Source of the DNA: Fusarium oxysporum f. sp. lycopersici 4287
Taxonomy: Eukaryota; Ascomycota; Sordariomycetes; Hypocreales; Nectriaceae
DNA length: 64,000 nucleotides
Reading direction: 5' to 3'
NCBI RefSeq assembly: GCF_000149955.1
Contig: NC_030994.1
Span: 1,404,151 to 1,468,150, forward strand
Shown: positions 15,940-21,327 of the stretch, in pieces
How positions within the stretch are numbered: the stretch's first letter is position 1
Layout: every line of letters begins with the position of its first letter
Notes under the pieces: model-generated
What the model was told of the DNA's origin: nothing
What the model saw: only the letters and a program-made list of their open reading frames with translations
Database searches by the model: none
Translations under genes and position numbers: made by a program

Positions 15940-17196
15940 ATGCCTCACGTTCCCGCTTCAGCTGAAGCTGACAGCCAAGGCGATGCGCCCGAGCTCGTTT
16001 TCCCACCAGTCACTAAAGATCACATCCAAAACTGCTCCTACGACTTCTGGTTTCCCAAATACCGAAGTTCATGTCTCAAATCTCGCATCATACCGCTGTC
16101 CCCTTCTTTCGTCGAGTATCTCCATGAAGACGGTATAGTTCTTGCAGATGATGATGATGATGAGAATCAAGACGAGCCTGAAGAAGAATGGCATCCATCA
16201 TCCAATACATCTGCAAGGCCTCAAGTTAAGGATCCCGATTCGTCAGATGATGAGGAAGACGAGCCAGAAAGGCTCCCTCCTAACCAGAGGTTCCCGGAGA
16301 CACACAATCTCATCAAAGAGAAGATTGCAGAATTAGGTGGCTCAGTTGCGCCCAAGTTGAACTGGTCTTCACCAAAGGATGCCAAGTGGATTTCGCCTCA
16401 TCAGAACACACTCAAGTGCACGACCCCAAACGACATCTACCTACTCCTTAAGTCATCTTCTTTTGTTTCTCACGACCTCGATCACGCCTTTGATGACTGC
16501 ACTCCAAGACCTCCGACCAAGCCATACGCACCCATTCTTGTTCTAAGACCATTCTTCACCCCTCATGTGGCCCTGGAATTTCGATGTTTCGTCAAGCATA
16601 GAACTCTCATTGGTATCACACAGCGAGATCTCAATCATTATGCTTTCTTAGAGCAGATTCGACCTCAGCTGTGGCGCAAGATCAAGACATTCTTCCGAGA
16701 GAAACTGAGGTTCACATTTCCTGACGCCAGCTTCGTCTTTGATGTTTACATTCCAGAGAACTCCTTTGAGAAAGATGGACTTGGAAGAGTCAGGTTAATG
16801 GATATCAACCCATGGGCTCCTCGAACAGACAGTCTCCTTTTTGGCTGGCAAGAGCTTCTCGAGATGGATGTTAAGAACCCCCTGTATGGAACATCAAGTA
16901 ATGAGGCCGGCGCGGATGTCAGCGGTGATGACACAGTCACAGAAGGTGAGGAGGAGGATGACGATATCGAGTATCGACCTGAAATGAGCCCTGAATTCAG
17001 GATAATAGAAAAGGATGACCCAGCTGCATACAACTTTAGTAGCCCCCAATACTCAGCGCACAAGCTACCAAAAGAGGTAGTCGATGCAAGCATGGGTGGC
17101 CAGGGAGGGTTGATGGAGTTTGCGATGCAGTGGAAGGAGATCACCGAGGGACGAGGAGATGGAATTTGGGAACAGGCTTCTGGTGCTAGGCAATAG
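15940..17196 (+). CDS. cdc123: Cell division cycle protein 123, eIF2 assembly factor
   Basis: One uninterrupted exon of 418 residues. It matches the Cdc123/D123 family: an N-terminal SYDFWFPKYRSSCLKSRIIPL segment, an acidic insertion (~65-110, runs of Asp and Glu), a WSSPKDAKWI motif, then LRPFFTPHVALEFRCFVKH. The C-terminal active-site region has FVFDVYIP and LMDINPWAPRTDSLLFGW. These belong to the ATP-grasp fold of the family; Asp-Ile-Asn and the preceding Asp-Val are the likely metal and ATP ligands. Cdc123 binds eIF2-gamma and promotes assembly of the eIF2 trimer, so it controls translation initiation. The tail after ~360 is acidic and divergent. The length is slightly above yeast Cdc123 owing to the acidic insertion. 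Most likely cytosolic. Confidence 0.95.
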   Translation: MPHVPASAEADSQGDAPELVFPPVTKDHIQNCSYDFWFPKYRSSCLKSRIIPLSPSFVEYLHEDGIVLADDDDDENQDEPEEEWHPSSNTSARPQVKDPDSSDDEEDEPERLPPNQRFPETHNLIKEKIAELGGSVAPKLNWSSPKDAKWISPHQNTLKCTTPNDIYLLLKSSSFVSHDLDHAFDDCTPRPPTKPYAPILVLRPFFTPHVALEFRCFVKHRTLIGITQRDLNHYAFLEQIRPQLWRKIKTFFREKLRFTFPDASFVFDVYIPENSFEKDGLGRVRLMDINPWAPRTDSLLFGWQELLEMDVKNPLYGTSSNEAGADVSGDDTVTEGEEEDDDIEYRPEMSPEFRIIEKDDPAAYNFSSPQYSAHKLPKEVVDASMGGQGGLMEFAMQWKEITEGRGDGIWEQASGARQ

Positions 17197-17947: not shown

Positions 17948-18970
17948 ATGGGCAAAATGAAGGCTGGGCGCAGCACGCGCCGACACACGCCCCTCCCCAA
18001 TACTTCAACACGTTCTTCAAACCGCATTGCTGCGAAGAAGCAGACCAAGGGAACGAAGCAAGCTGGGTCGAGCCAGGAGAAAGTTCCATCTGCTCCTCAT
18101 GAGCCTACTTCTTCTCAGGAAACTCTAAAGAACTCGACTGATTCATCCAACCAAAACAACTTCAGCAGCTTCAGCAGCTATAACACTAATGAGTATGTTG
18201 AGCTTCCCTCACTTGCGTCCACACACTTACTCAATACCACTAGCAGCCACTCAGCTGAGCAGGTCGAGGGAACTTTAGCCCTCGCTCACCGTAATCCTCA
18301 GGTCCATGGAACCGGTGTTACATCCTCAAATCCTTCCAACAACACAGTTGGATCAGACACACCCCAGCTGACAGCTGGCGACGTCGCTCTAGAAATCTAC
18401 GGCAGCAGAATACTGATCGACAGCACTCTCGGTAAAAAGCTAGCCGGCGAAGCATCACTACGACCTATCCGGCAACGTCGCTCTGACATGGTTCTGAATA
18501 TGGAGCGCCGCAGCAATGTCGAAGCCTTCTTGGCTCATCTCACTGGAGTCCAGGTCAGCCGTTCTTGCAAGAATTGCTCCAAAGGACACGGTCCCTGGTC
18601 TGAATGTATCATCTATGATGGCCAGATGTGTGGTAGCTGCACAAATTGCTGGTTCAATGCCAGTGGCTCTCGATGCACTTTTCACGGTAAGTTGACCCTC
18701 ATGCCACACCGATATTATGAATCGACACTAACAAACTTTCCAGAGAATAACCAAAACTCCATCTATGCCCCGGCACCATTGTATCATCCTCAATCCGCGG
18801 GGATGCCAACTCAGCCTTTTCAATACGCCCAGCTCAATCCCCAGGCGCTTTCCCAGGGCATCCTCCCTATGAACCGAGAAGCTACCGCGTCCCTCTACGT
18901 GGCACCTCAAATGCGTAACCAGTTCGCTCTGAGCATTTTCCAGTCCTTGGGAATCGGTTCCGGCGAATAG
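17948..18970 (+). CDS. DUF3716 Cys-rich protein, cut by in-frame TAG
   Basis: Exons are read as 17948-18686 and 18744-18970, giving 321 residues to the TAG. The N-terminal ~170 residues are disordered and Ser/Thr/Asn/Gln-rich with a basic start (KAGRSTRRH). Residues ~165-245 look like the fungal DUF3716 domain. A basic helix and VEAFLAHLTG are followed by a Cys cluster, CKNC ... GPWSEC ... MCGSCTNCWFNASGSRC, ending CTFH, which may bind zinc. DUF3716 has no known function; it occurs in multicopy families in Fusarium and other moulds. The intron (57 nt; GTAAGT, CTAAC, CCAG) has a length divisible by three and no stop. After the TAG the same frame continues to 19399, see the next entry. The start at 17948 is the first ATG followed by protein-like sequence; the open frame reaches back to 17615 without one. 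Confidence 0.75.
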   Translation: MGKMKAGRSTRRHTPLPNTSTRSSNRIAAKKQTKGTKQAGSSQEKVPSAPHEPTSSQETLKNSTDSSNQNNFSSFSSYNTNEYVELPSLASTHLLNTTSSHSAEQVEGTLALAHRNPQVHGTGVTSSNPSNNTVGSDTPQLTAGDVALEIYGSRILIDSTLGKKLAGEASLRPIRQRRSDMVLNMERRSNVEAFLAHLTGVQVSRSCKNCSKGHGPWSECIIYDGQMCGSCTNCWFNASGSRCTFHGKLTLMPHRYYESTLTNFPENNQNSIYAPAPLYHPQSAGMPTQPFQYAQLNPQALSQGILPMNREATASLYVAPQMRNQFALSIFQSLGIGSGE

Positions 18971-18978
18971 AATTTGCC
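18962..18978 (+). promoter_or_regulatory. Hairpin placing the TAG adenosine in its loop
   Basis: GGCGAAT (18962-18968), loop AGA (18969-18971) and ATTTGCC (18972-18978) form a seven-pair stem with one G.U pair. The A of the TAG is the first loop base and is preceded by U. This matches the described preference of Sordariomycete A-to-I mRNA editing. Fold and position are seen; editing is inferred. Confidence 0.55.
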
Positions 18979-19399
18979 AGGTCCCGCCAACAACATGATC
19001 GGCAATGTTGTCTCAAATGTCGCTGCTATGAGCCAAGGAGAACGAAAGTTTGCACAAGTAGAAAGGGCTGCCGAGGAGCTTGGTATTCGCCTTGCGGAAC
19101 TCCACGAGTTCCTTGCCACCCCCGAGGGTAATGCTTTCGTGACCCAGCTTTCTGGGATGGCTGCTCCCCAGCAAATCTCTTCTGGGGACGATCAATCCCA
19201 GGAGCCACTCTCCCAAGAGCCTTCTTCACAGAACAATGCCCACCAGGAGCACGCTTCCCAAGATACTTCTTCCCATGAACCTTCCTCTCAGGAGCAGTCT
19301 GCTCAGCAAACCTCGTCACAGGAAGGCTTTTCTCAGGGAAACATCGAAGCACATCCTATGGCATTCGCTCTCTTAAACACTCCGCCATATGAGAACTGA
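18971..19399 (+). pseudogene. In-frame continuation of the DUF3716 gene beyond the TAG
   Basis: Directly after the TAG at 18968-18970 the same frame stays open for 142 codons and ends with TGA at 19397-19399. The first half reads as an amphipathic helix (RKFAQVERAAEELGIRLAELHEFLATPEG). The second half is a five-residue repeat around S-Q-E-x-S (19194-19349) in which the copies use different synonymous codons. There is no ATG where a separate gene would start. The most economical reading is one gene of 464 residues whose tail is reached only if the TAG is edited, spliced out or read through. A recent nonsense mutation would look the same. It is labelled pseudogene only because the stop separates it from its start. 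Confidence 0.6.
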
Positions 19400-21327
19400 G
19401 TGGTTCCATGCTCAGTGAGACCGCCGACGCATAAAACTTCCATTGAGCAAGGCTTAATGCTATGACGACCCTCAGCAATGCATCTAATACGCAGAACACA
19501 AAAGAATAAAAAGACCAGTCAACAAACCTATAGAAAAGTCGAGTGATGTAAGTCCACTCACACGGTTCACTGCAACCCACTAACCAAGTCGCAGTGCTCC
19601 TTGATCTCCCTTAACCCAGAATTTGGAACCCCTCGCTTATTGTGTAATCTCAAGTGAGTTTGCCGCTTGTTTCGGGCTACTCTCTGTCTTGAGACTACTA
19701 TTGGAATACACATTGTGTCACCACTGGATGAGAAGACTGTGCACCAAATCAACATGCTCGTAGTTATGAGCGTGTAGGCCATATTCGAGCAATAATCATC
19801 CGCCATTTCATTTTGCGAATTTTTCTTTTTTCAGTACCGCGGGCTGGCTCGACTCAAGACACATGTCGCCACTCTTCGATGTTCGTGCAGTTCAGCCGAA
19901 CTATTTTCTTTACCAACAATTGTATGATCATGTATTCAGGACAAACCGATAGCAAGGGCAGAGTTTGGCTAGCAGGGCTAGCAAGTGTATGGCAACTTTC
20001 AAGTAGTCTTGGAGGCTAGGCAGTCTAGGTTGGCCCTAGAGGGATATCAACTACTATCTGTACCAGTATCGATCTCGAGCAAGAACAACTCAAAGGCTCT
20101 GGGATACCTTTATGCCGAGATTGTCGGATATAGTCTATAACGAGTAGCCTTAGAGTATGGTAGTCCTGACAGAATTGAGATAGCCGAAACAAACAAGATC
20201 ATTAAACACGTGAGTCGCGATAGGACACGACTATTTGCTGCATATGCATTTTTGATATGAGCGGTAGAAGCTGGATCGGCGCCACTTGTACGGTTTTCGT
20301 GAAACATTCCCTTTCTTGCTATCTCTCATATATATTCTTCCTCCCAGGAGGGAGACCAAAGTTGAGTCAAGTCACATGATCTTGTTTATCTCGGTCTCGA
20401 GGACATCATCACAAGCAACATCCAACTGCTCCCACGCATGTCTCATATCTTAGAGACAAAACCTCCATAGTTCTGTAGGGTGATGGACCCGGATGTGTCC
20501 CCGTTGAGAAACGTGCGTGGGTAGCGCGCGTTAACATCCTCTGCTCTGCGCAAAAACGGGCACTGGGCTTGACTTCAAGACATACGCCAAAAGAAATGTG
20601 AGTCAAAATGCTAGCGAAAAGAGCAAACAAGACAGGTGCGGAATTTGCGACAGGCGGTGTGTTTGTTTCAGACGAAAGACGTGCCAAATCATTATTTTAC
20701 AGTATACTTGATAGTTGAAATTAAACGAGAAAACACCGCATCCGAGGGACGAGTGAGTAAACAATACAATGCTAACGTGTGGTGGGTAAAAAGGCATGGA
20801 CTGTAGTGGTAGGAAAGAGTTTCGTAATTAAACAAAGTAGATGACCACCATCTTCCGTCGCCCGTACTGTTTAGATGCAAATAATGACCCCTTCTTCCAG
20901 CCTCGTCCGTCACGCTCTTGAACGGGCAAATCATATCTTCCCGACGTCATGGGCGGCCATGACCACTGGCCTTCGCGGCTTCATCATCCGTGGTCCACCG
21001 TTCTTAAAATCCTTCTCCCTTTAAAAAGACGTTTTTGTGATACAAGGCAACTCCCATCCATCAACCGGAAAATCCTTACAAAGAAACGGAACCAAGGTCG
21101 ACCTGGGCACAGCCAAAGCTAGTAGTATATCTGGCGTAATGGGTGAGCCGGACCGTCAGTAACCGTCGTCGACCCTAGGAGTCACGCAGTTGTTGACTTG
21201 CGCCTTCGCTCCTCCGGTATGACGAGTACAAGAAAAAATCGTGAGCCATATCCCCGTGGCCCATCTAAGCAGTGTCGTTATTAAGTTCGAGGGTATTCGT
21301 GTTTTGTGACAGCAAGAAAAAAATCAT
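19400..21327. other. Intergenic region, no gene recognised
   Basis: This 1.9-kb stretch lies between the DUF3716 gene and the 3' end of the convergent G-alpha gene. Only short frames without features are present. A small hairpin-capable CTCCC/GGGAG occurs near 20346. Nothing else seen. Confidence 0.45.

What the first reader, a model, noticed from the sequence alone, without database searches (positions are those of the whole stretch)
18962..18978. In-frame TAG in a hairpin loop: candidate A-to-I edited stop codon
The DUF3716 gene is interrupted by one TAG and the frame stays open for 142 codons beyond it. A18969 is the first loop base of a seven-pair hairpin (GGCGAAT-AGA-ATTTGCC) and has U at -1. 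Established work on Fusarium graminearum and other Sordariomycetes shows stage-specific A-to-I mRNA editing during sexual development that favours U at -1 and hairpin loops, and that recodes UAG to UGG in otherwise broken genes (the kinase PUK1 is the known example). Here UGG would give Trp and a 464-residue protein. I infer that this gene belongs to that class.
Basis: partly seen in the sequence, partly recalled or inferred. Interest (0 to 1): 0.85.

Follow-up and report, generated by a model that had tools for sequence, protein, structure and literature searches.

The report
Shared Fusarium stop codon awaiting RNA editing
A gene in a Fusarium oxysporum-like fungus carries a stop codon in mid-gene, at the place where most relatives outside Fusarium carry tryptophan, and its setting suggests the cell converts it back to tryptophan in the RNA message; why a fungus with no described sexual stage would keep it is an open, testable question.

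Summary
The hairpin alone is weak: 28 of 1270 TAGs in the window have such a stem. Comparison decides. Projected without gaps from the conserved helix behind the stop, the TAG falls on Trp in 38 of 47 homologues not labelled Fusarium; none of 22 Fusarium-labelled models with that helix has Trp there. Of 42 Fusarium-labelled models, 19 end at or near the site, 22 resume behind it, 1 is partial; 11 further records hold only the downstream half. The part behind the stop is about as conserved as the part before it. None of 41 GT-AG spans skipping the TAG has a listed donor or branch site. The genome encodes an Ame1-like protein with the residues needed for editing. Best reading: restorative A-to-I editing of UAG to UIG, restoring ancestral Trp; a new member of the PUK1/CHE1 class. 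No RNA reads or relatives' DNA were available, so editing is inferred; when F. oxysporum, considered asexual, would edit is open.

The parts
17948..18686 (+). Exon 1 of the DUF3716 gene (ATG at 17948)
   Evidence: protein homologues
18524..18685 (+). DUF3716 (PF12511) Cys-rich domain, residues 193-246
   Evidence: Pfam E 1.2e-15, 57.6 bits against cut-off 22
18687..18743 (+). Intron 1, 57 nt (GTAAGT ... CTAAC ... CAG), a multiple of 3
   Evidence: removed in many public orthologue models, read through in a few such as P0006 and P0011
18744..18967 (+). Exon 2 coding part before the stop
18962..18978 (+). Hairpin: stem arms 18962-18968 and 18972-18978, loop 18969-18971
   Evidence: prediction
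18968..18970 (+). In-frame TAG (codon 322); A18969 is the proposed A-to-I site; aligns with a conserved Trp outside Fusarium
18971..19399 (+). 142 open codons plus TGA; encodes the conserved C-terminal helical part and a Ser/Gln-rich tail
   Evidence: helices in a homologue model
18915..18980 (+). In-frame span (66 nt, GTAACC...TGCCAG) that fits the intron of F. oxysporum model P0001; judged artefactual
   Evidence: P0001 reads QMR|PANN; no listed donor or branch site
19548..19594 (+). Consensus-like intron behind the TGA (GTAAGT, CTAAC, GCAG, 47 nt)
   Evidence: joining across it reproduces the C-terminal ends of F. oxysporum models P0132 and P0133

Best explanation
The gene is a working gene of the restorative (premature-stop-correction) class. 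A Trp codon changed to a stop (TAG here) in an ancestor of Fusarium and has been kept since. Unedited mRNA gives a 321-residue protein that ends 75 residues after the Cys-rich DUF3716 domain. When the Tad2-Tad3 tRNA deaminase is redirected to mRNA by Ame1, A18969 in the hairpin loop is deaminated, UAG becomes UIG, and Trp is inserted, giving the 464-residue protein with its C-terminal helical part. Shown here: the TAG, frame, predicted hairpin and flanking bases, the aligned Trp outside Fusarium, the shared end point of Fusarium models, conservation behind the stop, and an Ame1-like protein with the key residues. Inferred: that the RNA is edited, by which enzyme, at which stage, and what the short and long forms do. 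My guess on function: a zinc-binding regulatory protein whose helical C-terminus is supplied only when editing is active.
For: Gapless projection from the downstream helix puts the stop on Trp in 38 of 47 proteins not labelled Fusarium that have that helix (83 considered); over the other 61 positions examined (-40 to +21) those 47 proteins hold 3 Trp in all. Of 42 Fusarium-labelled models, 10 end clearly at the site, 5 from more distant species end with a similar motif, 4 more (LDPSN ends) end where it probably lies, 22 have the helix but resume behind the site, 1 is partial; none of the 22 has Trp at the projected place. Downstream-only models in 11 Fusarium-labelled records; in F. gaditjirri, F. 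mundagurra and F. pseudocircinatum the halves carry consecutive locus tags on contigs of equal length. Identity to nine other-species sets: core behind the stop 32/44 to 44/45, N-terminal part 132/175 to 159/174. Context preferred at -1, +1, +3, a combination reported to hold many edited sites. Ame1-like protein: MV at S-31/-30, D at S+58, H at S+98, the spacings of MV500-501, S531, D589, H629. CHE1 shows the same three annotation faults at a stop proven to be edited.
Against: No RNA evidence. The hairpin is only a 2-3% feature with z -1.35, and three of six flanking positions carry depleted bases. 9 of the 47 homologues with the helix lack Trp at the site, among them Neonectria magnoliae, although N. 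ditissima has it. The stop codon type in relatives is unknown. F. oxysporum has no described sexual stage, and genome-wide editing is reported only from sexual tissue. The Ame1-like match contains one TAA, presumably in an intron, which I did not resolve.
Confidence: 0.82

Rival explanations
1. The TAG is removed by splicing of an in-frame intron, as public models assume.
For: P0001 (cluster of 31 members) and other Fusarium records are modelled this way. In FgBUD14 both editing and alternative splicing of the stop-bearing intron occur (review PMC11156358).
Against: 41 GT-AG spans of 45-150 nt would skip the TAG, 15 in frame; none of the 41 has any of six listed donors or a YTRAY branch site 6-40 nt from its end, whereas intron 1 has GTAAGT and CTAAC. 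Boundaries differ: five arrangements in the six models P0001-P0005 and P0007. The peptide before the stop varies conservatively (IFQSLGIGSGE, MIQALGLGSGR, ILQTLGIGSGE) as coding sequence does.
Confidence: 0.06
2. TAG is the real stop; Fusarium makes only the short protein and the rest is a relict.
For: 19 of 42 Fusarium-labelled records end at or near the site.
Against: The frame behind the stop is kept to its end or nearly so in records of 14 labelled Fusarium species, and its core is about as conserved as the upstream part. No dN/dS could be computed without DNA.
Confidence: 0.05
3. Translational readthrough or reinitiation delivers the downstream part without editing.
For: A Met is the ninth codon behind the stop (residue 331), and the 11 Fusarium-labelled downstream-only models begin there.
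Against: That Met is not shared by all: F. redolens P0007 has Val, and the aligned outgroups have mostly Leu or Met. UAG followed by A is, as far as I recall, not a known leaky context. Replacement of Trp by a stop at this one codon is what UAG-to-UIG editing restores.
Confidence: 0.05
4. It is edited, but by another deaminase (OLD, OTT_1508 family) or in vegetative cells rather than by Tad2-Tad3-Ame1 in sexual tissue.
For: 13 OTT_1508 matches in this genome; CHE1 is edited in hyphae; OLD prefers the same U(-1) loops.
Against: None of the 13 OTT_1508 matches lies on this contig, whereas zao genes sit beside their OLD genes. Pfam finds no C2H2 finger in either half.
Confidence: 0.15

Closest known systems
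PUK1-like restorative (PSC) editing genes of F. graminearum (Liu et al. 2016, PMC4817773; abstract and sections 11, 12, 14, 16, 17 read)
   Same: In-frame UAG with U at -1 and an open frame beyond, false introns in automated annotation, same stop in relatives
   Different: Editing not observed here; different protein family; whether the F. graminearum orthologue is in their Supplemental Tables 3 or 4 could not be checked
CHE1 (FG3G21220; Zou et al. 2024, PMC11169179; parts 1-4 of 5 read)
   Same: Stop position conserved across Fusarium; the same three annotation faults; edited A in a loop
   Different: CHE1 is a C2H2 factor edited in hyphae; this is a DUF3716 protein, and relatives outside Fusarium show the Trp at the site, whereas the CHE1 authors call tracing homologues outside Fusarium very challenging
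OLD-ZAO antiviral editing pair of Neurospora (commentary PMC12754623, part 1 of 3 read)
   Same: UAG corrected by A-to-I editing, with U at -1 in a loop
   Different: No OTT_1508 deaminase on this contig and no zinc-finger match behind the stop

Membership tests
PUK1-class restorative PSC editing | In-frame UAG with long open frame behind it | tested here: met
PUK1-class restorative PSC editing | Edited A has U at -1 and lies in a hairpin loop (a preference, not a rule) | tested here: met
   (prediction)
PUK1-class restorative PSC editing | Automated models avoid the stop by truncation, false introns or split genes | tested here: met
PUK1-class restorative PSC editing | Stop stands where relatives have Trp | tested here: met
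   38 of 47 homologues not labelled Fusarium with the helix
PUK1-class restorative PSC editing | Stop is UAG in orthologues | not testable with these tools
   No DNA of other Fusarium held with G000
PUK1-class restorative PSC editing | A-to-G in RNA with A in DNA, mostly in sexual tissue | not testable with these tools
   No RNA reads available
Tad2-Tad3-Ame1 substrate | Genome has an Ame1 with the MV dipeptide and D589 equivalent | tested here: met
   orthology judged from residue spacing only
Tad2-Tad3-Ame1 substrate | Genome has Tad2 and Tad3 | tested here: inconclusive
   9 PF00383 matches, not assigned to genes
OLD-ZAO pair | OTT_1508 deaminase gene next to the edited gene | tested here: not met
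   13 matches in G000, none on C9
CHE1/ZAO | Zinc-finger transcription factor domain behind the stop | tested here: not met
   Pfam on both halves

The most novel reading that the evidence does not exclude
A restorative editing site fixed in an ancestor of Fusarium is still functional in a F. oxysporum lineage without a described sexual stage, so that lineage must edit mRNA in a hidden sexual cycle or in vegetative cells; intact stop-bearing genes of this class plus an Ame1 with MV and D589 would then be a genome-level marker of cryptic sex or of asexual editing.
Probability: 0.5. Interest if true: 0.75.

Novelty: new member of a known kind. Interest (0 to 1): 0.62.

Why it matters
It is a clear comparative case for restorative editing: the earlier residue, the likely branch of the change and its retention can be read from public proteins. 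DUF3716 occurs in 0 papers of the held library, and if the reading is right the public Fusarium models examined are wrong at this point. In F. oxysporum, considered asexual but with recombination attributed to sexual reproduction (abstract of PMC10318998), one cDNA amplicon would test whether mRNA editing is alive.

Tried and rejected
Hairpin as stand-alone evidence: rejected, 28 of 1270 TAGs in the window have such a stem, and the 61-nt fold is not exceptional (z -1.35). Adjacent OLD deaminase: not found. Relatives with solved structures: 0 by sequence profile, 0 by Foldseek with a model of mean pLDDT 63.4, so no function from fold. A first MAFFT alignment did not place Trp on the stop, probably because false introns in the models opened gaps; the gapless projection from the downstream helix replaced it, a choice made after seeing the sequences. 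Of 83 proteins not labelled Fusarium considered, 36 lack a match to the downstream helix and were left out of the Trp count; of proteins new only P0142 and P0143 were added to that set. Assembly error: rejected because records of many species end at or avoid the same place. DUF3716 in print: 0 papers in the held library. F. oxysporum with A-to-I and RNA editing: 16 papers listed; PMC12582100 was searched inside and the passages shown name no edited F. oxysporum gene; the other 15 I saw as listing entries only. Sex in F. oxysporum: two listings, one abstract and one passage read (PMC10318998).

Full report
What is there. The window lies in a 61.2 Mb, 71-contig genome. Its protein matches a F. 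oxysporum record closely (P0001: 169/172, 54/54, 56/58, 45/45 and 84/85 residues by part), so I treat it as F. oxysporum-like, an inference. The gene runs from ATG 17948, with a 57-nt intron, to TGA 19397-19399, and has one in-frame TAG at codon 322. DUF3716 lies wholly before the stop. Upstream on the same strand, at 15940-17196, is a D123 (CDC123-type) gene, and other large ORFs include Nup188 and an IGPS/PRAI enzyme, so this looks like core chromosome. The 464-residue count keeps a 51-nt stretch (18193-18243, read by eye) that some public models such as P0001 lack and others such as P0006 keep.

Local signals. A18969 is in the loop of a 7-pair hairpin, predicted with flanks of 20 to 200 nt and in the approximate mRNA. 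Flanking bases are preferred at -1, +1 and +3 and depleted at -2, +2 and +4; the 2022 cis-element paper says the group with this combination holds more edited sites than many groups with more preferred positions (PMC9600606 section 6). By itself the hairpin is weak: 28 of 1270 TAGs have a stem of 7 or more around the A.

Comparison. A search with the protein (X at the stop) gave 124 proteins, 120 listed; the downstream half alone gave 16; F. culmorum P0078 gave 78. In one search I classed the 42 Fusarium-labelled proteins (counts checked). Ten end clearly at the position of the TAG (GSGE, GSGR, GSGK, GSDE, RPGE; P0006, P0008-P0010, P0012-P0017). Five more distant records end with a similar motif (F. 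lateritium, F. coffeatum, F. equiseti, F. pseudograminearum, F. graminearum). Four end in LDPSN (F. duplospermum, F. falciforme, F. euwallaceae, F. piperis), where the homology of the end is less sure. Twenty-two contain the downstream helix but resume behind the site, with different boundaries even in near neighbours; for the more divergent of these I cannot say from protein alone that the genome has a stop. One is partial. None of the 22 has Trp at the projected place. The downstream half is its own gene in 11 Fusarium-labelled records, two further Fusarium-labelled hits (P0135, P0136) match only 27% of it, and in three species the two halves carry consecutive locus tags on contigs of the same length. 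These are the three annotation faults described for CHE1, whose stop is proven to be edited (PMC11169179).

The earlier residue. Counting back without gaps from the conserved helix behind the stop, 38 of 47 proteins not labelled Fusarium have Trp exactly at the stop position; the other 61 positions examined hold 3 Trp in all 47 proteins. The nine without Trp have R (3), L (2), N, S, F or D. Ilyonectria, Dactylonectria, Cylindrodendrum and Neonectria ditissima have Trp, Neonectria magnoliae has L, so the change is most simply placed near the base of Fusarium; no tree was made. That all Fusarium stops are TAG is not known, because only proteins were available.

Constraint behind the stop. Against nine other-species sets (two of them F. 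redolens or like it) the core behind the stop is 32/44 to 44/45 identical, compared with 132/175 to 159/174 for the N-terminal part and 41/75 to 68/75 for residues 247-321; the 32/44 is F. proliferatum, whose model skips into this region. A model of the Ilyonectria homologue P0024 gives two confident C-terminal helices (306-332 and 335-353, block means 75-95 over 301-350) preceded by a weaker one (288-301, block means 58-64) that starts four residues behind its Trp 284. The stop would thus cut the protein just before its C-terminal helical part. No solved structure matched.

Rivals. Of 41 GT-AG spans that would skip the TAG none has a listed donor or a YTRAY branch site. The Met behind the stop is not shared by F. 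redolens P0007. A relict tail does not fit the conservation. Editing by an OLD-type deaminase is possible, but none of the 13 matches is on this contig.

Machinery. Among the DUF726 matches, L008 has M-V at 31 and 30 residues before the nucleophile-position Ser, Asp 58 and His 98 after it, the spacings of MV500-501, S531, D589 and H629 in F. graminearum Ame1, where MV and D589 are needed for the interaction with Tad3 (PMC11087585 section 17). At the same offset L009 has AH and L010 has SL. The L008 match holds one TAA, presumably intronic, not resolved. Tad2 and Tad3 were not individually identified.

Meaning. I file this as a new member of the restorative-editing class, with the editing step inferred. 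It may already stand in a supplementary table for F. graminearum.

Noticed in passing
19548-19594: A consensus-like 47-nt intron (GTAAGT, CTAAC, GCAG) lies behind the final TGA; the ends of two F. oxysporum models (P0132, P0133) fit its use. A 3'-UTR intron could expose unedited mRNA to nonsense-mediated decay (speculation).
   Followed up: partly
L008 (G000:C4): Ame1-like DUF726 protein with the MV dipeptide, D and H at the published spacings.
   Followed up: partly
L003-L007 (G000 C1, C7, C15): Five further DUF3716 matches lie in long, similar ORFs at several places, two pairs with equal scores, as if a repeated element carries the domain; Pfam finds nothing else in the two pieces tested.
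   Followed up: partly
L012-L017 and other G000 contigs: 13 OTT_1508 (OLD-type) deaminase matches, five of them with almost equal scores on C1, C2, C15 (two) and C71.
   Followed up: no
18193-18243: A GTATGT...CTAG stretch of 51 nt (by eye) is absent from some public models and kept in others; its peptide LPSLASTxLLN recurs in P0011, P0015 and P0016, which suggests coding.
   Followed up: partly
P0135, P0136: F. proliferatum and F. fujikuroi models carry a short piece of the downstream core inside otherwise unrelated sequence.
   Followed up: no
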